Origin: Archaeoglobus sp.
GTDB lineage: Archaea > Halobacteriota > Archaeoglobi > Archaeoglobales > Archaeoglobaceae
DNA: 64,000 nucleotides
Reading direction: 5' to 3'
NCBI RefSeq assembly: GCF_017656475.1
Contig: NZ_JACDNT010000003.1
Coordinates: 1 to 64,000, forward strand
Shown: in pieces, positions 29,311 through 37,299 of the stretch
How positions within the stretch are numbered: the stretch's first letter is position 1
Layout of the letters: every line of letters starts with the position of its first letter
Made by a program: the position numbers and the translations under genes
The notes under the pieces: generated by a model
What the model was told of the DNA's origin: nothing
What the model saw: only the letters and a program-made list of their open reading frames with translations
The model's database searches: none

Positions 29311-29320
29311 CTATAAATAA
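29311..29320 (+). promoter_or_regulatory. TATA element of the winged-helix gene
   Basis: CTATAAATAA is centred about 26 nt before the ATG at 29341. It argues for that codon rather than the GTG at 29335. Confidence 0.55.
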
Positions 29321-29340
29321 TTTGTAAATTTAATGTGGTT

Positions 29341-29592
29341 ATGGGAGAGAAAAGGTCGCGTTTCGAGATTTTCGTTGCCATTTTGAAAGTGACAGGCAGC
29401 GGGGCAAATATGACCAGGATAGTTTACGGTGCGAACATAAACTTCAAAATGGCTCAAAATTACATTGAATACCTTCTCGATAAAGATTTTCTTGTGTTAA
29501 CCTCAGAAAACGGGAAAAAGATATACAGCACCACTGAGAAGGGGAGAGATTTTGTAAAAAAATACGGTGAACTGGAAGTGTTAGCTGAGTAA
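29341..29592 (+). CDS. Winged-helix DNA-binding protein, archaeal HTH_45-like
   Basis: An 83-aa protein with a single winged-helix domain: an N-terminal helix RFEIFVAILKVTGSGANMTRIVYGANINFKMAQNYIEYLLDKDFL and a wing DFLVLTSENGKKIYSTTEKGRDFV. The pattern matches the small archaeal transcription regulators grouped as HTH_45. It lies just upstream of the secreted-protein and signal-peptidase cluster, so regulation of that cluster is a reasonable guess. It has its own promoter. Confidence 0.75.
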   Translation: MGEKRSRFEIFVAILKVTGSGANMTRIVYGANINFKMAQNYIEYLLDKDFLVLTSENGKKIYSTTEKGRDFVKKYGELEVLAE

Positions 29593-29628
29593 ACCTCAGA
29601 GCATAAGTTCAGTAGCTATACTTCGAAT

Positions 29629-29639
29629 TCTTTAAATAT
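29629..29639 (+). promoter_or_regulatory. TATA element of the 58-aa gene
   Basis: TCTTTAAATAT is centred 27 nt before the ATG at 29661. Confidence 0.55.
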
Positions 29640-29660
29640 TCTTGCCACACAATTCAAACC

Positions 29661-29837
29661 ATGTTAAAAAATATTGACAAAATCCTGGAAATGATAAAAG
29701 ACAAAAGGCTGCCAAAAGAAAAGTTATCGCGAAAAGAACTCAATATTTTGCTTGAACTCGGATTGGTAGAAATAAAAGACGGAGAAATCGTGATTACTGA
29801 GTGGGGAGATAAGTTTCTGAACCTTCCTACTGAGTAA
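29661..29837 (+). CDS. Small winged-helix-like protein (58 aa)
   Basis: An ORF two residues too short for the track: [58 protein letters not shown]-type sequence. The second half ([26 protein letters not shown]) has the helix, strand, turn, strand and helix of a winged-helix wing. A strong TATA element at the leaderless distance supports expression. It may be a DNA-binding or anti-regulator peptide paired with the winged-helix gene 68 nt upstream. No family name is known to me. Confidence 0.6.
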
Positions 29838-29886
29838 TCTTACTGAAAATCCTTTCTAATTTTGGCTTCTGATTTTATTTTCAAAT

Positions 29887-29897
29887 ATTATATATAA
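29887..29897 (+). promoter_or_regulatory. TATA element of the secreted-protein operon
   Basis: ATTATATATAA lies about 58 nt before the ATG at 29951. Unlike most genes here, this leaves a leader of roughly 30-35 nt containing a hairpin and a strong GAGGTG ribosome-binding site. Confidence 0.5.
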
Positions 29898-29918
29898 CAT
29901 TTTGAACAACATATCTTA

Positions 29919-29933
29919 TCGGCTGAATGCCGA
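29919..29933 (+). promoter_or_regulatory. Leader hairpin before the first secreted-protein gene
   Basis: TCGGC-TGAAT-GCCGA forms a five-base-pair stem with a five-base loop. If transcription starts about 25 nt after the TATA element, the hairpin sits at the very 5' end of the mRNA, seven bases before the GAGGTG ribosome-binding site (29940-29945). Confidence 0.4.
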
Positions 29934-29950
29934 GAAAGTGAGGTGAAAAA

Positions 29951-30541
29951 ATGAGAAAAATGCCATTGGGTATATTGGGAGCAATGGTGGCTCTGAGCCT
30001 TGTCATTGGTGTAAGCGCTACCTTTAGTGACTACAACGCAGATAGAAGCATCCACTGGAACATAACAACTGACGATACGGAGCTGATAGACCTGAAACCT
30101 ATTCAGCCCTATGCTTATATCGCTGACAACGGAGAGCTTGTAGTTGACTTCTCGCCCAACAACCCGAATTATCCGGGTTACGGCGATGGAATTAGCCCGG
30201 CAAGCGAGTACAACTTCAACGAGGTTTTTGCAGTGAGCAACCATCTCTGGGAAAACATGCCAATAGTTGTGAGAATTACATCATCCAACACGCACGTTGA
30301 ATTCTACTCACACGAGGGTGGAGTTTATGCGGTGGATGGTGGTGCAGCAGCAACAGCTTCAGACAGTGCCAGGGATGATGTGTGCTTCGTTCTTGGGCCA
30401 AACTCAGAGAAGAAGATTGGAATGGACCTCAGCGCTAACGGAGACAGTCCGGGAGATGTGTGGGATTTGACAATGACAGTGAAGGCCTACAGGCTTGGAA
30501 CAGAGCCTGCTGAGCTGAGTAACTGTGGACAGGTGATATAA
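29951..30541 (+). CDS. Secreted DUF1102-like protein 1, candidate fibre subunit
   Basis: A 196-aa protein with an N-terminal signal peptide (MRKMPLGILGAMVALSLVIGVSA) and probable cleavage before TFSDYNADRSIHWN. The FSDYxAxR segment just after the cleavage site resembles TasA/camelysin-type subunits processed by SipW. The mature part is beta-rich, with IDLKPIQPYAYI, a PNNPNYPGYGDGIS motif and a single Cys pair late in the chain. It closely parallels the next gene. It is probably secreted and assembles or coats the cell. A strong GAGGTG ribosome-binding site suggests high expression. Confidence 0.7.
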   Translation: MRKMPLGILGAMVALSLVIGVSATFSDYNADRSIHWNITTDDTELIDLKPIQPYAYIADNGELVVDFSPNNPNYPGYGDGISPASEYNFNEVFAVSNHLWENMPIVVRITSSNTHVEFYSHEGGVYAVDGGAAATASDSARDDVCFVLGPNSEKKIGMDLSANGDSPGDVWDLTMTVKAYRLGTEPAELSNCGQVI

Positions 30542-31071
30542 TGAAAAAGTTAGCAGGTCTTCTGCTTCTGATTGTTGGCTTAACGCTGACGATAGGGGCG
30601 GGAGCAAACTTTAGGTATTACGAAGCTGAAAGGAGCATAACCGTGAACATTACGTCAGATGACAACGAGTTCATCGATCTAACTCCATTGCAACCCTATG
30701 CCTACCTGAATAATGGAAAGTTGACCATTGAGATGTCACCCAACAACCCGAATTATCCGGGTTATGGTGACGGAATGAGCGTCAACACAATATACGTGTT
30801 TGAAGAGATGTTCAACGTAAGCAACGAGCTTTGGGAGAATGAAAATGGTGATTTCCCGGTTTGCGTGCAGATATCGATAAGTGATGGTGTTGAAGTCTTT
30901 GCCGGGGACTACGACAACCCAATTAGTGGTCCAGGAACGCAATTGCAGTTTACCGTGTACCATGACGAGCCAGTTCCAGTTGGATTCGTATTCAACAACA
31001 CCGACAAAGAAATGGGCGCACAACATGTTCAGATGAGTATTGTTGCCGTAGCAGGAGCTTGCGGTGAGTAA
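30541..31071 (+). CDS. Secreted DUF1102-like protein 2, candidate fibre subunit
   Basis: A 176-aa paralogue of the preceding protein. The signal peptide (MKKLAGLLLLIVGLTLTIGAGA) is followed by NFRYYEAERSITVNITSDD, then IDLTPLQPYAYL and SPNNPNYPGYGDGMS, aligned with protein 1 through most of their length. Two Cys occur in the mature part. Its ATG overlaps the stop codon of gene 1 by one base, so the two are translationally coupled and probably made in set proportion. Likely roles are main and minor subunit of one polymer, but which is which cannot be told. Confidence 0.7.
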   Translation: MKKLAGLLLLIVGLTLTIGAGANFRYYEAERSITVNITSDDNEFIDLTPLQPYAYLNNGKLTIEMSPNNPNYPGYGDGMSVNTIYVFEEMFNVSNELWENENGDFPVCVQISISDGVEVFAGDYDNPISGPGTQLQFTVYHDEPVPVGFVFNNTDKEMGAQHVQMSIVAVAGACGE

Positions 31072-31105
31072 GCTCCCAACTTTAATTTTTTTATGAGGAA
31101 AGCAA

Positions 31106-31564
31106 ATGAAAAAAATCATAATTGCGATAATATTACTTCTCATAGCTCTCGGATTGAGAGCTCCAGCCATATCTGTCATGGCTGCAGATACCATTAGTGG
31201 AATTTTGCTTTACTCTACCTCACCCTACGCAAATAACGAGAACAACCTGACGATAGATATTACCGAAAACAACCCGAACTATCCGGGCTATGGCAATGGC
31301 CTGAGTCCGGGGTCAGTTTACAGATTTGATGACCTTTTAACCATAGAAAACAGCAACAGCTTTCCGGTTTGCGTTGAACTCGAGTCTCAGAGTGATCTGG
31401 TAAAATTTTACACTGACGGAGACTCTTTGCCAGCAATCAGCTTCACACTCGCTGTGAATGAAAGCATGTCTGTGGGTGTGGAGTTCAACGCAGCAGAGCT
31501 TGGACTGATGGAGGAGTATTACAGCATTCAGATACTGGAAGGCGGTTGCAATGAAACTGTCTGA
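31106..31564 (+). CDS. Secreted DUF1102-like protein 3, short variant
   Basis: A 152-aa relative of the two preceding proteins. It has an N-terminal hydrophobic signal (MKKIIIAIILLLIALGLRAPAISVMA) and lacks the FxxYxAxR segment seen in its neighbours, but keeps ENNPNYPGYGNGLSPGSVYRFDDLLTI and the following FPVCVEL. It could be a capping, adaptor or anchor subunit of the same assembly. Its 3' end overlaps the signal peptidase gene by 14 nt. Confidence 0.65.
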   Translation: MKKIIIAIILLLIALGLRAPAISVMAADTISGILLYSTSPYANNENNLTIDITENNPNYPGYGNGLSPGSVYRFDDLLTIENSNSFPVCVELESQSDLVKFYTDGDSLPAISFTLAVNESMSVGVEFNAAELGLMEEYYSIQILEGGCNETV

Positions 31565-32573
31565 TATTCTCCTGCTCGTTTTACTGGCGTTCCTGCTGGC
31601 ATCAACAGCAGGATTCGTGCTTAACAGGCCAGTTCTGCTGTCTTACGTAACTTCAGACAGCATGACTCCAACTTTAAACAGAGGTGACCTTTTCCTCATA
31701 AATCCACTTGCAGAAGCAAAGCCGGACGACATAGTCGTTTTCAACCTGAACGGTCACTGGACAGTTCACAGAGTTGTGGCGGAGACTGATGGAGGTTACA
31801 TTACCAAAGGTGACCACAATATTGCCACAGACCAGCAGGGAGGTACGAACACGGTCAAAAGGGAGAGCGTTGCTGGAGTAGTTCCAATAATCTTTGGCAC
31901 TCCACTAAAAGTTCCAGAAGTTGGAAACTATATCCAGAAACTTTCTGGAACAACGATAAACATATTGTTGGCAGTTTTCATGATAATAGGCGGAGCGACG
32001 CTGTTAACAGGGAGGGGAGAAGAAAGGAAAAAGGAAAAGAAGGTTTACAGGCTGAGATACGAGACTCTCTATGTTGCAGTCTCAACAGTGTCGATTGCCA
32101 TGCTTCTTCTCTCCATACTGGCCACATGGGGGACTGCTGGTTTCAGCTATGCCTCAACCTTAGCAGGTGGTCAGAGGGAGGGATGGTATCTGCCCGATTC
32201 GGAGTTTGATAAGCAGATTGAGATAAAGAACAACGCCCTATTCCCGCTCATTTACGTTTTCAGTTTAGAAAGTGATAGGGCTGAATTGCAGGAATCAAGC
32301 AAAATTCTCTCAGCAGGGGAGAAGGCAGAATTGAACGTTCACGTTAAAGTTCCTTCAGAAACGAGAATTTATTATGACGAAATAGTGGTTCAGGCTTATC
32401 CGCTAATTCTTCCGTCGGAGATCATAATCAGAATGCACAGTTTAAGTCCTCTCCTACCGCTTGCAGCCTTCGCAATGGAGTTTGCGGTGGTTTTGAGTGT
32501 AATCTACTACGCAACAAATGCGGGAGAGGAGGAGGTTATAAGATTGAATAAAAGAAGGAGGTTGAAATTATGA
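31551..32573 (+). CDS. SipW-like signal peptidase I with C-terminal extracellular and membrane extension
   Basis: A 340-aa protein. Residues ~1-160 form a signal peptidase I of the archaeal/ER type: the catalytic Ser is in SDSMTPTLNRGD, the His replacing bacterial Lys in WTVHRVV, and the Asp in TKGDHN. Residues ~170-340 are an extra region with a membrane helix, an outside domain (GFSYASTLAGGQREGWYLP, then KNNALFPLIYVFSLES) and another membrane helix with a basic tail. Ordinary archaeal signal peptidases lack this extension. Its place among four secreted substrates suggests a dedicated processing enzyme. Confidence 0.85.
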   Translation: MKLSDILLLVLLAFLLASTAGFVLNRPVLLSYVTSDSMTPTLNRGDLFLINPLAEAKPDDIVVFNLNGHWTVHRVVAETDGGYITKGDHNIATDQQGGTNTVKRESVAGVVPIIFGTPLKVPEVGNYIQKLSGTTINILLAVFMIIGGATLLTGRGEERKKEKKVYRLRYETLYVAVSTVSIAMLLLSILATWGTAGFSYASTLAGGQREGWYLPDSEFDKQIEIKNNALFPLIYVFSLESDRAELQESSKILSAGEKAELNVHVKVPSETRIYYDEIVVQAYPLILPSEIIIRMHSLSPLLPLAAFAMEFAVVLSVIYYATNAGEEEVIRLNKRRRLKL

Positions 32574-33400
32574 AAAAGTTAATATTAATTCTTGCAGCTA
32601 CTCTCGTGCTCGTTCTGGGGGCGAGCGGGAACTTCAGAGAGTATTATGGAGCGAGGGGTGTTGCCGTCAGCATCGCGGACAACAACAGCTCTTACATAGC
32701 ATTTGAATGTCCGGAAATAACGCTCTACTTGCAGAGCGGAGAAAGCTCAGGTGTAATTTCAGTTAGAAACAACCTTGGAGAGGACGCTGAGCTGTATTTC
32801 TCCACACCTGATGACATTTTAACATTCACCAATCCAACGTTTCTGTATGCAGGTGAGGAGAAGCTTGTTCAGGCTGAGTTCACAGGAGATCAGGGTGAAT
32901 ACACAATCCCGATAGATATCGAAGCGTTCTGGGCAAACGGCTCAGCCAGAATCCCTGCGTGCAGCGTTAAGGTTGTTGATCCGCTGGTAAAAATAAGCAA
33001 GATACTTTTCGAAGGGGACACAGAAGTTCCGCTGTTTGAGAGAGAGGTCTGGACGTTCAGAATTCTTGTTGAAAGTAAAATCGGGGGTAATTATACAATC
33101 CTTGACACAATCCCGGCAGAATTCGAGGTTCTGAGTATAACTTCATCCAGTGGCAGTCACACAGAGCATCATCCTGGAGTGGGAAGAAGCGGTGTGACTA
33201 AAATAGTATGGGAAGTCCACGTTGAAGGGTCAGAATTTATGGACGTTACGGTTGCAACGAAGCTCAACCCTGCAGGGAAGCAGGAGTTCACGAGTCCGGG
33301 AAGTTACAATCTTAACGATGGTGCGGAAATAAAGGGGCTTGGAATAGTCAGCAATCCCATCATCGTTAATGCAGTGAGAGGTGTTAATAATGGAGAGTAA
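32570..33400 (+). CDS. Secreted protein with FxxYxAxR start and DUF11-like domain
   Basis: A 276-aa protein. The signal peptide (MKKLILILAATLVLVLGASG) and following NFREYYGARGVAVSIADNN match the starts of DUF1102-like proteins 1 and 2. The first half is a beta domain with EC and AC Cys. The second half (LVKISKILFEGDTEVPLFEREVWTFRILVESK and GNYTILDTIPAEFEV) resembles the DUF11/conserved-repeat type domain of archaeal surface proteins. It could be a base or tip protein of the assembly. It overlaps the signal peptidase stop by ATGA. Confidence 0.65.
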   Translation: MKKLILILAATLVLVLGASGNFREYYGARGVAVSIADNNSSYIAFECPEITLYLQSGESSGVISVRNNLGEDAELYFSTPDDILTFTNPTFLYAGEEKLVQAEFTGDQGEYTIPIDIEAFWANGSARIPACSVKVVDPLVKISKILFEGDTEVPLFEREVWTFRILVESKIGGNYTILDTIPAEFEVLSITSSSGSHTEHHPGVGRSGVTKIVWEVHVEGSEFMDVTVATKLNPAGKQEFTSPGSYNLNDGAEIKGLGIVSNPIIVNAVRGVNNGE

Positions 33401-34301
33401 GTATAAAAATATAGCCACGGTGGCGCTGTCAGTCACAGGGGTTCTGCTGGCTGTTATGGCTGTTTACGCGTTCTCAACGCCATCTGAGAACGTCAAAAAT
33501 GTTGTTGATGAGGTTGTTGTGCAGAAGGGGAACTTTGAGCATTATGCAACGCTCTCGAATGAATCAATTTACGGCAGGAAGGCGTCGCTTGATTACTATC
33601 CTGAGGGGATAACCGAGAGCATTGAAGGTGTTTACAGCTACACTGTAAGCCCTGAAAAGGTCGGAGAGTATAGAATGGTTGTAAAGACAACATACTACGT
33701 GCAGGAAGGCAGGAGCAAGGTTCAGGTCTGGGAGGAAACGCTGAGGGAAGAGCAGGGAGAATTTGTTGGAAACGTAACCATTCCAGTTACGCTGAACTTC
33801 GCCGAGATGAATGAAATGCTCAATGTGGTGAAAGATGGGACGGCATTGCCGAGACTTGCAGGAGTTACGGAAATCATTTTCACGGCAAACACCGAAAATG
33901 AGAGTTTTAACCACACAGTTACGCTGAATGAAGGTAGCAGCCTTTACAGCTTCTCAGATACATCGAAGAGCACAAGAACGGTTTACAGTACGAGAGAGGT
34001 TACGGAGAACAGCTTTGGCGGTGTCAGTGTGAACAACGCAAGGATATTCTATGCTGCGATGGCCATTTTTACTGCAATACCAGTTGCGGTGATCAACAGA
34101 GACTTGATAAGGAGGGAGAAGAAGAACCCACACGTCGTCAGCGGTAGAAGAGAGGGGGACAAAATTATACTTGAAAGTGAGGAAGACCTCAAAAAGGTTT
34201 TTGCAATGTCGGACAGCCCTGTAGTCAGAACGGAGATTGACGGTGTTGCTGTTTACTCGATAGTAGCAGAAGGTGTGGTTTACGAGTATCGGGAGCGGTA
34301 A
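33390..34301 (+). CDS. DUF5305-like membrane protein
   Basis: A 303-aa protein from ATG 33390, chosen because GAGAGGTG precedes it by about 6 nt; the track GTG is 9 nt earlier. It has an N-terminal membrane helix (NIATVALSVTGVLLAVMAVYAF), a ~170-residue extracellular beta domain (VSPEKVGEYRMVVKTTYYVQ), a second helix (NARIFYAAMAIFTAIPVAVI) and a ~60-residue cytoplasmic tail. This layout fits DUF5305, which I recall next to SipW-like peptidases in other archaea. It may anchor or control assembly. It overlaps the upstream gene by 11 nt and is last in the operon. Confidence 0.65.
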   Translation: MESKYKNIATVALSVTGVLLAVMAVYAFSTPSENVKNVVDEVVVQKGNFEHYATLSNESIYGRKASLDYYPEGITESIEGVYSYTVSPEKVGEYRMVVKTTYYVQEGRSKVQVWEETLREEQGEFVGNVTIPVTLNFAEMNEMLNVVKDGTALPRLAGVTEIIFTANTENESFNHTVTLNEGSSLYSFSDTSKSTRTVYSTREVTENSFGGVSVNNARIFYAAMAIFTAIPVAVINRDLIRREKKNPHVVSGRREGDKIILESEEDLKKVFAMSDSPVVRTEIDGVAVYSIVAEGVVYEYRER

Positions 34302-34476: not shown

Positions 34477-34523
34477 GAAAAATTAAAAAATGGTTGTTAG
34501 TTGTGTGTTTTGGTGAGGATGAT

Positions 34524-35741
34524 ATGGAGTTGGAATTCAGCCAAGAGCACAGACTGTTTAGGGATAGCCTGAGGGAGTTTCTGGCAAAGGAAATAGAACC
34601 GATTGTAGATGAAAAGGAAAAGAAGGGGCCACTGACGAAGGATGAGGTTCTGGACCTTTATGCCAAATTCAAGAAGCTCGGAATTGGCTACGATCCGGAA
34701 AGTCTTTCAGTATACTTCGAAGACCCGTTTTATTACGGAATAGCAAGTGAGGAGATAAGCAGGGTTTGGGCGAGTCTAAACGTTGTTCTCGGGATGTCCT
34801 TCCCGGTTGTTTTTGTAAATCTCGCCTCAGAACAAACGAAAGAGGTGATGATGCCGAAGCTGGAGAAAAATCAGCTTATAGGGTGCTTGGCAGCTACAGA
34901 GCCTGAGGGGGGAAGCGATACAACCACAATGAAGACAACAGCAGAGCTTGACGGGGATGAGTGGGTTCTGAATGGCACAAAGACGTGGATCAGCAACGCC
35001 ACAATTGCTGATGTTGCATTGGTGGTGGCAACGAACAAGGAAACGGGAATGCAGGACATGTTTCTCGTTGATAGAGTTAACTCTCCCTTCGAGACGAGTG
35101 AGCTTCACAAGCTTGGATGGAGAGCATCACCGACAGGTGAGATATACCTCAAGAACTGCAGGGTGCCAAGGGAAAATGCCCTGAGCATAATGATTCAGAA
35201 GGCGTTGAGTGAGGGGACTATGGTCGAGTCTCTGCCCATCGCAGCCTCAATATCAAAACTTTACGCGTACATGTCTCCCCTAAGTGCTGTTTTCTGCTTG
35301 ATGCGTTCAGGGATGGCGTTAATGGCCACTGGAATCTCTCAGGCAGCGCTTGACGCTTCCGTAGCCTACGCAAAGCAGAGAAAAGCCTTCGGAAAGCCGA
35401 TAGGTAAGTTCCAGCTTATTCAGGACATGCTTTACAAGATGGCTGCTATAACTGAATCTTCAAGGCTGCTTGGCTACAAGGCGCTTTACATGATACAGAA
35501 AGGCGATCCCAAGGCAAGATACATGTCATCTCTGGCAAAGGGGTATGCTTGTGAGGGATGCGTGAAGGTTACCTATTACGGCATTCAGATACACGGCGGT
35601 CTTGGGCTCAGCGATGAATATCCGCTGGAGAGGTACTTCAGAGATGCGAGGGTTATGACAATTCCCGACGGCACAACGGAGATTCAGAAGCTCATAGTCG
35701 GCAGAGAGTTGCTTGGCAAGGGATTCTCGGCATATTCTTAG
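34524..35741 (+). CDS. Acyl-CoA dehydrogenase
   Basis: A 405-aa FAD enzyme of the acyl-CoA dehydrogenase family, oxidising acyl-CoA to enoyl-CoA. Visible elements are CLAATEPEGGSD (FAD/substrate region), LNGTKTWISNA, the C-terminal QIHGGLGLSDEYPLERYFRDARV, and IPDGTTEIQKLIVGREL. In medium-chain enzymes the catalytic base is Glu in the xEGTxxIQ position; here it is Asp (PDGT), a variant known from other subgroups. The start at ATG 34524 is set by a GGTGAGG site; the track's TTG would add 10 residues. It is in an operon with the next acyl-CoA synthetase gene. Confidence 0.9.
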   Translation: MELEFSQEHRLFRDSLREFLAKEIEPIVDEKEKKGPLTKDEVLDLYAKFKKLGIGYDPESLSVYFEDPFYYGIASEEISRVWASLNVVLGMSFPVVFVNLASEQTKEVMMPKLEKNQLIGCLAATEPEGGSDTTTMKTTAELDGDEWVLNGTKTWISNATIADVALVVATNKETGMQDMFLVDRVNSPFETSELHKLGWRASPTGEIYLKNCRVPRENALSIMIQKALSEGTMVESLPIAASISKLYAYMSPLSAVFCLMRSGMALMATGISQAALDASVAYAKQRKAFGKPIGKFQLIQDMLYKMAAITESSRLLGYKALYMIQKGDPKARYMSSLAKGYACEGCVKVTYYGIQIHGGLGLSDEYPLERYFRDARVMTIPDGTTEIQKLIVGRELLGKGFSAYS

Positions 35742-35742
35742 C

Positions 35743-37299
35743 ATGAAGCCTTGGTTTAAATCCTACCAGATGATGGGTCTCAGGGAGTCCATTGAGCCGT
35801 ATCCAGAGGTTCCCTTATATTATTTTCTTGAGGAATCCGCAAAGAACTTTCCCGATTCAACAGCAATCACATATCTCGAAAAGCAGATGACATATTCAGA
35901 GCTGCTCGATGCTGTCAACAGGCTGGCCAATGGATTCTCGGAGTATCTGAGCAGGGGAGACAGAGTTCTGATAACTTTAAGAAACTGTCCTCAGCTCCTC
36001 ATTGCCGAGCTTGCAGCTCTGAAGTGTGGAGCTTCAGCCGTGCTCGTAAGTCCGCTACTGCCAGAAAAAGAGTTGAAGGATATCGCTGAAAAAACCGAAC
36101 CAAAAATTGTGGTGGGAGAAAAGAAATTTTCTGAATACGGAATCTTTGTCGAAACCAAGCCGTCCAATTTAATGGGAGATGACGACTTCTGGAGTATTAT
36201 CAAATCAAGCCAACCCGATCCACCTGATGCAGAAATTAATCCAAAAGAGGACGTTGCGGTTATCCTGTTCACGGGTGGAGTCACGGGCGTGCCGAAGGGG
36301 GTTATGCTCACCCACCACAATCTGACGACCAACGTTCTTCAGGTCTTGCCGTGGCTTCTTGGCGGTGCGGCAGAAGCTGTAAGGGGTTCCGGTTCTGTAT
36401 TGCTCGCATCTCCAGTCTTCCACTCGTACGGACACTGGGGCATGCATGTGGGGCTTTATTGGGCATTCAACTTGCTTATAGTCTCCGATCCGAGAAACTA
36501 CGATGAAATACTTGGCTACATGAAGAAATACGGCCCTTGGGTTACTGTTGGCGTTCCCGGACAGTATATGAAGCTCATAAAAAGGGAAATCGAGGGGCTA
36601 TGGACCATAAGCGTGTCTGGTTCGGCACCGCTGCCAAAAAGTACCGCAAAGGAGTATGAGAAAAAGGCCGGTATTCCAATAGTTGAAGGCTACGGGTTGA
36701 CGGAAACCTCCCCGGTTACGCACATCAACATCGCAAGCATTGCAAGATTCCTCGGCCTGGATGCTCCGGACAAGACTGGCTCAATAGGTGTCCCTGTCCC
36801 AGATACCGATGTCAGGATTGTAAGAGAGGATGGAAGTGAGGCAGAATTGGGAGAGGAGGGAGAGATGCAGATAAAAGGCCCCCAGCTCATGAAAGGATAC
36901 TGGAACGCTGAAGACCCATTCATTGACGGCTGGTTACCAACGGGTGATGTAGCCTACGTGGATGAGGACGGATTCTTCTACATCGTTGACAGGGTTAAGG
37001 ATATGATAAACGTGTCTGGTTACAAGGTGTATTCGAGAGTTGTCGAGGAGGTTCTTCACCAGCACCCTGCTGTTGAGCTTGCTGCGGTGGTAGGAATTCC
37101 GGACAAGGAAAAAGAGGGGTCTGAGAGGGTCAAGGCCTTTGTAAAGCTCTTTGACGGAGCATCAGCAACGCCGGATGAAATAAAGGAGTTCTGCAGGGAG
37201 AGACTTCCCCCTTACGCCGTTCCCGTTGAAATTGAGGTGAGGGAAACGCTGCCACAGACGGAAACGCAGAAGATTCTGAAGAGGTTACTATTACAATAG
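35743..37299 (+). CDS. Acyl-CoA synthetase (AMP-forming)
   Basis: A 518-aa member of the ANL adenylate-forming superfamily that activates a carboxylic acid to its CoA thioester. The phosphate loop is FTGGVTGVPKGVMLTHHN, the A5-type motif GYGLTETSPVTH, the hinge Asp in PTGDVAYVDEDGFFYIVDRVKDMI, and the C-terminal catalytic Lys lies in ETQKILKR. The ATG at 35743 is one base after the dehydrogenase stop; the track start lies inside that gene. The pair suggests activation and first oxidation of a fatty or other acid. The chain length is not readable. Confidence 0.9.
   Translation: MKPWFKSYQMMGLRESIEPYPEVPLYYFLEESAKNFPDSTAITYLEKQMTYSELLDAVNRLANGFSEYLSRGDRVLITLRNCPQLLIAELAALKCGASAVLVSPLLPEKELKDIAEKTEPKIVVGEKKFSEYGIFVETKPSNLMGDDDFWSIIKSSQPDPPDAEINPKEDVAVILFTGGVTGVPKGVMLTHHNLTTNVLQVLPWLLGGAAEAVRGSGSVLLASPVFHSYGHWGMHVGLYWAFNLLIVSDPRNYDEILGYMKKYGPWVTVGVPGQYMKLIKREIEGLWTISVSGSAPLPKSTAKEYEKKAGIPIVEGYGLTETSPVTHINIASIARFLGLDAPDKTGSIGVPVPDTDVRIVREDGSEAELGEEGEMQIKGPQLMKGYWNAEDPFIDGWLPTGDVAYVDEDGFFYIVDRVKDMINVSGYKVYSRVVEEVLHQHPAVELAAVVGIPDKEKEGSERVKAFVKLFDGASATPDEIKEFCRERLPPYAVPVEIEVRETLPQTETQKILKRLLLQ

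What the first reader, a model, noticed from the sequence alone, without database searches (positions are those of the whole stretch)
29311..34301. Candidate TasA/camelysin-type fibre operon with a dedicated, extended signal peptidase
Seen directly: two small winged-helix-like genes, then six genes in one direction, mostly overlapping. Three are paralogous secreted proteins sharing an NNPNYPGYGxG motif. One is a SipW/ER-type signal peptidase (SDSM, VHRVV, KGDHN) with a ~170-residue extension. One is a secreted protein with a DUF11-like domain. One is a DUF5305-like two-helix membrane protein. Proteins 1, 2 and 5 carry FxxYxAxR just after the cleavage site. Established knowledge: Bacillus TasA and camelysin are processed by SipW and form fibres; archaeal bundling pili are homologous to TasA. 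Inference: this locus makes a related extracellular filament or coat in Archaeoglobus, with several subunit types and a peptidase specialised for them.
Basis: partly seen in the sequence, partly recalled or inferred. Interest (0 to 1): 0.85.

Follow-up and report, generated by a model that had tools for sequence, protein, structure and literature searches.

The report
Archaeal donor-strand fibre operon (DUF1102)
This Archaeoglobus operon most likely builds a protein fibre on the cell surface whose subunits plug into each other like the matrix fibres of Bacillus biofilms, and it carries its own membrane signal peptidase fused to a chaperone-like domain, a candidate for the assembly machinery that archaeal fibres of this kind have so far lacked.

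Summary
Three DUF1102 proteins, an ER-type signal peptidase (SPase) with a ~210-residue extension, a secreted two-domain protein (P7) and a DUF5305-type membrane protein lie on one strand behind two small winged-helix genes.

The fibre interpretation is supported by computation, not by experiment. The AlphaFold2 model of subunit S1 (pLDDT 85.6) has AbpA, the P. calidifontis bundling pilin, as its best Foldseek match in the PDB (350,542 chains); ranks 2-5 are FimA pilins. TM-scores are only ~0.4. The conserved N-terminus is disordered in the monomer. It puts Phe and Tyr at mature positions 2 and 5, where the TasA donor strand has F29 and I32.

The same genome has two sister loci with SPase, DUF5305 and winged helices: one AbpX-like by sequence (E 1.4e-13), one camelysin/TasA. 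The operon recurs across Archaeoglobaceae; DUF1102 is in 87 of 94 Thermococcaceae; haloarchaea have a Tat-exported version. The SPase extension is a confident membrane-tethered PapD/MSP-like beta-sandwich. A third subunit, where present, usually lacks the donor segment.

I found no paper naming DUF1102 or DUF5305. I file it as a new variant of TasA/AbpA donor-strand fibre systems. Fibres and strand exchange were not shown.

The parts
29335..29592 (+). Small winged-helix protein (HTH_45 / Sso10a family), probable local regulator
   Evidence: PF14947 1.9e-23 and NF053610 1.1e-21, both over cut-off; paralogues precede both sister loci
29661..29837 (+). 58-aa winged-helix-like ORF, probable second regulator
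   Evidence: weak HTH hits only; same place in related loci L033 and L036
29951..30541 (+). S1: DUF1102 fibre subunit with N-terminal donor segment
   Evidence: PF06510 3e-59; AF2 pLDDT 85.6, pTM 0.82; best PDB fold match AbpA 7ueg E 4.8e-5
30020..30046 (+). Proposed donor segment of S1, TFSDYNADR, directly after the inferred cleavage site
   Evidence: residues 1-8 pLDDT < 50 in the monomer; near-universal motif in subunits 1 and 2; positional match to TasA AFNDIKSKD (PMC9674648)
30541..31071 (+). S2: second DUF1102 fibre subunit with donor segment
   Evidence: PF06510 1.3e-55
30607..30633 (+). Proposed donor segment of S2, NFRYYEAER
   Evidence: alignment A1, motif count
31106..31564 (+). S3: third DUF1102 subunit, no donor segment; proposed accept-only terminal subunit
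   Evidence: PF06510 7e-27; 15 of 16 third subunits lack the motif
31551..32573 (+). Dedicated ER/SipW-type signal peptidase with Ser-His-Asp residues (S37, H73, D94 invariant)
   Evidence: TIGR02228 over cut-off; invariant columns; human SEC11A/C best by sequence and by fold
32130..32402 (+). SPase extension: beta-sandwich (residues 194-284) held between TM helices 170-190 and 302-322
   Evidence: AF2 pLDDT about 90 in this part; PapD-like/MSP-domain fold matches; conserved to haloarchaea over 346 columns
32570..33400 (+). P7: secreted two-domain protein, DUF1102-like N-terminal domain plus DUF11-like C-terminal domain; proposed tip, anchor or minor subunit
   Evidence: hhalign with DUF1102 98.4 %, E 9e-15; DUF11 in 11 of 24 aligned members
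32630..32656 (+). N-terminal segment of P7, NFREYYGAR (Phe at mature position 2)
   Evidence: alignment A4
33390..34301 (+). DUF5305-like two-helix membrane protein, proposed assembly or anchor platform
   Evidence: 26 of 28 aligned members match PF17231; 34 of 36 places in the family lie beside TasA/AbpX/DUF1102-type subunits

Best explanation
The operon makes a heteromeric, non-type-IV surface fibre built by donor-strand exchange, related to TasA and the archaeal bundling pili AbpA/AbpX. Proposed sequence of events: (1) S1, S2, S3 and P7 leave the cell with signal peptides. (2) The operon's own ER-type signal peptidase cuts S1, S2 and P7 just before [N/T/D]-F, where Phe sits at P2', a position the general bacterial enzyme cleaves poorly. 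(3) The freed N-terminus, (N/T)FxxY.A.R, is the donor strand; with its Phe and Tyr at mature positions 2 and 5, like TasA F29 and I32, it completes the beta-sandwich of the next subunit. (4) S3 can accept but not donate a strand, so it would end the fibre. P7 donates and carries an extra domain, so it would be a tip, anchor or minor subunit. (5) The membrane-tethered PapD/MSP-like domain of the peptidase and the DUF5305 protein receive or anchor freshly cleaved subunits. Steps 1 and 2 are supported by sequence and established precedent, 3 by fold and positional pattern, 4 and 5 are inference. None is shown experimentally.
For: Fold: S1 model pLDDT 85.6, N-terminal residues 1-8 disordered; best of 350,542 PDB chains is AbpA 7ueg (E 4.8e-5, prob 1.00), ranks 2-5 are FimA, itself a donor-strand pilin. 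Donor segment: 82 of 83 first/second subunits have FxxYx[ASV]xR (the miss is a search-window artefact), P1 is Ala, Gly or Ser and P2' is Phe in 102 of 104 proteins with the motif; TasA mature N-terminus AFNDIKSKD with anchors F29 and I32 (PMC9674648) gives the same spacing. TasA's P2' Phe goes with poor cleavage by LepB and use of SipW (PMC10269814). P7's first domain is homologous to DUF1102. Sister loci in the same genome: AbpX-like (PDB 9sj2 E 1.4e-13) and camelysin (PF12389 and TIGR04088 over cut-off), each with SPase, DUF5305 and winged helices. Linkage: 33 loci with room downstream, 32 with DUF5305; 24 of 24 DUF1102-positive Archaeoglobaceae genomes have DUF5305 against 4 of 31 others, Fisher p 9e-12. 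Distribution: 87 of 94 Thermococcaceae; haloarchaeal version. SPase extension is a confident tethered beta-sandwich with PapD-like/MSP matches, conserved to haloarchaea.
Against: TM-score to AbpA is only about 0.41 (rmsd 11 A); the fibre form and a monomer model differ, but this is below the usual 0.5 for the same fold. No sequence-level match of DUF1102 to any solved structure. Direct profile comparison with camelysin is weak (31.6 %; controls gave 19-24 %), and that with the AbpX group is local and modest (80 % over 27 columns). No oligomer could be modelled. Fisher's test ignores kinship of the genomes. No filament, expression or processing data were found.
Confidence: 0.78

Rival explanations
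1. The DUF1102 proteins form a cell-surface coat or S-layer-associated sheet, or decorate the S-layer, rather than free fibres.
For: Several paralogous beta-rich secreted subunits; near-universal in Thermococcaceae, as expected of a basic envelope part; the SPase domain and DUF5305 could tether them to the membrane.
Against: The best fold matches are fibre subunits that polymerise by strand donation; the N-terminal donor pattern is nearly invariant; patchy presence in Archaeoglobaceae, 24 of 55 genomes, argues against an essential coat.
Confidence: 0.14
2. The proteins are secreted enzymes of the camelysin/Peptidase_M73 kind, not structural subunits.
For: Camelysin was named a metallo-endopeptidase; a trace of PF12389 similarity at the S1 N-terminus (E 0.19).
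Against: No known metal-binding protease motif was seen among the invariant residues (R9, D18, P27, Y31, G38, G57, W77, by inspection); tandem paralogues with a dedicated processing enzyme fit subunits better.
Confidence: 0.03
3. The locus is a fibre system, but the signal peptidase is an ordinary processing enzyme and its extra domain and DUF5305 have no assembly role. This rival concerns step 5 only and is compatible with the rest of the best explanation.
For: Recombinant Bacillus TasA forms fibres without membrane machinery (PMC6334530, abstract); the PapD/MSP-like fold is a common Ig-type fold and the match does not prove homology.
Against: The domain is kept from Archaeoglobi to haloarchaea with a strongly conserved motif; DUF5305 occurs almost only beside such loci; a separate stand-alone 189-aa SPase-like protein lies elsewhere in the genome.
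Confidence: 0.4
4. A type-IV-pilus-like or archaellum-related appendage.
For: Most archaeal appendages described are of this kind (PMC10370314).
Against: No class III signal peptide or prepilin motif, no ATPase or platform protein in the cluster; beta-sandwich subunits.
Confidence: 0.01

Closest known systems
Archaeal bundling pilus AbpA of Pyrobaculum calidifontis (PDB 7UEG)
   Same: Best fold match of S1 in the whole PDB; secreted beta-sandwich subunit; proposed N-terminal strand donation.
   Different: Different sequence family; AbpA's paper was not available, so its gene neighbourhood could not be compared; here two or three DUF1102 paralogues plus P7, a fused SPase and DUF5305.
AbpX fibres of Pyrodictium abyssi (PDB 9SJ2, 9RHP)
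   Same: The sister locus A of the same genome matches AbpX by sequence (E 1.4e-13) and shares DUF5305, an SPase and winged helices with the window locus; aromatic residue at mature position 2.
   Different: DUF1102 itself is not AbpX by sequence; its SPase has a C-terminal tethered domain, whereas that of locus A has an N-terminal membrane extension.
TasA-TapA-SipW of Bacillus subtilis / TasA-CalY-CapP of B. cereus
   Same: Dedicated ER-type signal peptidase; Phe at P2'; donor segment with the same anchor spacing; more than one subunit type.
   Different: No TapA or CapP homologue found; SPase carries an extra exported domain; DUF5305 partner; S3 would be the opposite of TapA (accepts but does not donate).
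Chaperone-usher pili (FimA/FimC, PapD)
   Same: Fold ranks 2-5 are FimA; the SPase extension resembles PapD-like/MSP domains and one FimC complex is listed.
   Different: No usher and no outer membrane; the chaperone-like domain is fused to the peptidase and membrane-tethered. Likely analogy, not membership.
Sulfolobus threads (Saci_0406)
   Same: Archaeal donor-strand-complemented fibre.
   Different: No chaperone or usher could be definitively assigned in that gene cluster (PMC9715654); here two candidates are conserved.

Membership tests
DUF1102 (PF06510) | Profile match over curated cut-off | tested here: met
   S1 199.7, S2 187.9, S3 94.8 bits against 22.2
Camelysin/TasA (PF12389) | Profile match over curated cut-off | tested here: not met
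   S1 12 bits against 22.5; hhalign with local camelysins 31.6 %. Not filed as a camelysin.
TasA/AbpA-type donor-strand fibre subunits | Beta-sandwich/jelly-roll fold of AbpA or TasA type | tested here: inconclusive
   AbpA is the best PDB match, E 4.8e-5, prob 1.00, but TM only 0.41
TasA/AbpA-type donor-strand fibre subunits | N-terminal segment free in the monomer, with hydrophobic anchors after the cleavage site | tested here: met
   Residues 1-8 disordered in the model; F2/Y5 conserved like TasA F29/I32 (PMC9674648)
TasA/AbpA-type donor-strand fibre subunits | Strand exchange between subunits and fibre formation | not testable with these tools
   Needs oligomer prediction or cryo-EM
TasA/AbpA-type donor-strand fibre subunits | Dedicated SipW/ER-type signal peptidase next to the subunits | tested here: met
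   SPase follows the subunits in every locus with room for it
Archaeal/ER-type signal peptidase I (TIGR02228) | Profile over cut-off and Ser-His-Asp catalytic residues | tested here: met
   63.6 against 51.85 bits; S37, H73, D94 invariant in 39 sequences; their catalytic assignment is from general knowledge of the family
SipW equivalog (NF046067) | Profile over cut-off (190 bits) | tested here: not met
   26.5 bits; may work like SipW but is not the Bacillus equivalog
DUF5305 (PF17231) | Profile over cut-off | tested here: inconclusive
   Window protein 20.2 against 29 bits; 26 of 28 aligned members match the model at E <= 0.01, best 4.5e-24
Type IV pilins/archaellins | Class III signal peptide, helical N-terminus in the filament core, dedicated ATPase and platform | tested here: not met
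   SPase I-type sites, beta fold, no ATPase or platform genes in the cluster
Chaperone-usher chaperone (PapD) | Two-domain boomerang chaperone donating its G1 strand | tested here: not met
   A single beta-sandwich domain between TM helices; only fold resemblance to PapD-like/MSP domains

The most novel reading that the evidence does not exclude
This is an archaeal counterpart of the chaperone-usher logic packed into one membrane complex. The signal peptidase cuts a subunit loose and its own tethered PapD-like domain immediately caps the open groove. DUF5305 acts as the base on which S1, S2 and P7 polymerise by strand exchange until the accept-only S3 ends the fibre. DUF5305 and the peptidase are shared by AbpX, camelysin and DUF1102 fibres across Archaeoglobi, Thermococci and haloarchaea.
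Probability: 0.33. Interest if true: 0.87.

Novelty: new variant of a known kind. Interest (0 to 1): 0.72.

Why it matters
I found no paper in the open-access library naming either DUF1102 or DUF5305, yet DUF1102 is in 87 of 94 Thermococcaceae genomes and in many Archaeoglobaceae, with distant relatives in haloarchaea. Assigning them to donor-strand fibres would give a function to a widespread archaeal surface system. It also names concrete candidates, a peptidase with a tethered PapD/MSP-like domain and DUF5305, for the kind of assembly machinery that could not be identified for archaeal threads (PMC9715654). And it offers a simple reason why such fibres travel with their own signal peptidase: the first anchor residue of the donor strand occupies P2', where the general bacterial signal peptidase does not tolerate an aromatic residue well.

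Tried and rejected
Direct sequence link of DUF1102 to TasA/camelysin: weak (PF12389 E 0.19; hhalign 31.6 %, near control values of 19-24 %). PDB sequence search with DUF1102, P7 and DUF5305 profiles: nothing meaningful. A viral origin: no relatives in viral contigs. Camelysin-like protease: no catalytic motif seen. Type IV pilus: rejected. SPase extension as a fused DUF1102 domain: only a weak resemblance (23.8 %; 5 % with P7), so not claimed. The AbpA paper (PNAS 2022) is not in the library, so its gene neighbourhood was not compared. Oligomer modelling was not available.
Full report
Observation. The window holds a compact same-strand cluster as described: a winged-helix gene of the Sso10a/HTH_45 family, a 58-aa winged-helix-like ORF, three DUF1102 proteins (S1, S2, S3), an ER-type signal peptidase, a secreted protein (P7) and a DUF5305-like membrane protein. 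Four of five junctions in the six-gene run overlap. Minor corrections: the first gene starts at 29335/29341; P7 has FxxYxGxR; the SPase extension is about 210 residues. The closest large single-contig relative (G117, 2,178,400 bp) has the length I recall for A. fulgidus DSM 4304; that identification is from memory.

Conservation. A phylum survey with the DUF1102 model found it in 58 of 394 genomes: 24 Archaeoglobaceae genomes with strong, mostly tandem matches, one further genome of the same order, and more distant genomes of the phylum with weak matches, which read as haloarchaea (that reading is mine). The neighbourhoods showed the order S1-S2-(S3)-SPase-P7-DUF5305 again and again. A scan of named genomes returned 42 loci, in Archaeoglobales and many Thermococcus MAGs, with the same order. 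Among 33 loci with at least 3.6 kb downstream, 32 hold DUF5305, and the SPase follows the subunits in every locus with room for it. In the family of one Thermococcus genome 87 of 94 genomes have DUF1102. In haloarchaea a Tat-exported DUF1102-like protein sits beside an SPase of 383-397 aa and DUF5305; that SPase is homologous to the window's over 346 columns, extension included.

Sister loci. The same genome has two more SPase + DUF5305 clusters preceded by winged helices. Locus B (contig C16) encodes camelysin-type proteins, four over Pfam's PF12389 cut-off and five over the SipW-dependent signal model TIGR04088. Locus A (contig C20) encodes NAYPGY proteins; the profile of this group matches AbpX (PDB 9sj2, E 1.4e-13) and, weakly but in register, TasA. 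AbpX, AbpA and TasA fibres are all described as donor-strand exchanged (PMC11952670). In Archaeoglobaceae, 24 of 24 genomes with DUF1102 have a DUF5305-type protein against 4 of 31 without (p 9e-12, ignoring kinship). Of 36 DUF5305 places, 34 lie beside DUF1102, AbpX-like or camelysin-like subunits; of the other two, one is at a contig end and one is a short fragment. This makes DUF5305 a general partner of these loci.

Fold. AlphaFold2 with 99 sequences gave S1 a mean pLDDT of 85.6 and pTM 0.82, a beta-rich domain whose first eight residues are disordered. Foldseek against 350,542 PDB chains put AbpA (7ueg) first (E 4.8e-5, probability 1.00), followed by four FimA entries. The TM-score of 0.41 is low, so the fold relation is supported but not settled. 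P7's first domain is homologous to DUF1102 (98.4 %), so P7 is a fourth, two-domain subunit-like protein.

Donor segment. The third subunit lacks it in 15 of 16. The inferred cleavage site is [A/G/S] | [N/T/D]-F, so Phe is at P2'. TasA begins A28-F29-N-D-I32, with F29 and I32 named as donor-strand contacts (PMC9674648). LepB, the general E. coli enzyme, cleaves proteins with an aromatic P2' residue inefficiently, and TasA is cleaved by SipW instead (PMC10269814; that study also points to the Trp at P2). One conserved residue may therefore explain both strand anchoring and the need for a dedicated peptidase. That link is my inference.

Peptidase. The model (pLDDT 79; pTM 0.49, so domain packing is uncertain) has one N-terminal helix, a SEC11-like catalytic domain, two helices, a beta-sandwich (residues 194-284, pLDDT about 90; placed outside the cell by inference from topology) and a last helix. 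Fold matches are human SEC11A/C for the catalytic part, and PapD-like/MSP domains, presumably for the extension; the list also includes SipA, a signal-peptidase homologue needed for pilus polymerisation, and a FimC complex. The motif FxYxSTxAGGQREGWYLPGSxF at the start of the extension is strongly conserved. A tethered chaperone-like role is plausible but unproven, since this fold is common.

Verdict. Filament formation, strand exchange and the roles of S3, P7, DUF5305 and the SPase extension remain to be tested.

Noticed in passing
L081:5893-10479 (own genome, contig C20): A second, AbpX-like fibre locus with SPase (N-terminal membrane extension) and DUF5305; on the opposite strand beside it lies an 842-aa peptidase C25-PKD-dockerin protein. 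Similar proteins lie beside the related loci L144, L145 and L146.
   Followed up: partly
L080:3826-14060 (own genome, contig C16): A third, camelysin/TasA-type locus with two SPases and DUF5305, next to a 1170-aa subtilase-PKD protein; same arrangement in the A. fulgidus-like genome (L143).
   Followed up: partly
L041:5959-7527 and L044:8695-10263: In two genomes of one related genus a second DUF1102 cluster has four subunits, one enlarged to 522 aa with a long C-terminal part, perhaps an adhesin-like tip.
   Followed up: no
L059, L062, L063, L067, L068: Haloarchaeal DUF1102-like proteins carry Tat-type signal sequences followed by GAFSxVxxxRxVxVxVxxDxxA, matching the Archaeoglobus pattern; export of folded subunits would change how a donor strand is kept free.
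   Followed up: partly
L096:5263-5703, L039:6148-6474, L059:10565-11182: Outside Archaeoglobus proper the operon is often next to a DUF7344 winged-helix protein instead of the Sso10a pair, so the regulator appears to have been swapped.
   Followed up: partly
window:27402-29198 and 34494-37299: The flanks of the cluster differ between close relatives: upstream genes (biotin carrier and membrane decarboxylase-type) are shared with the A. fulgidus-like genome, downstream acyl-CoA genes are not, suggesting rearrangement at the locus.
   Followed up: no
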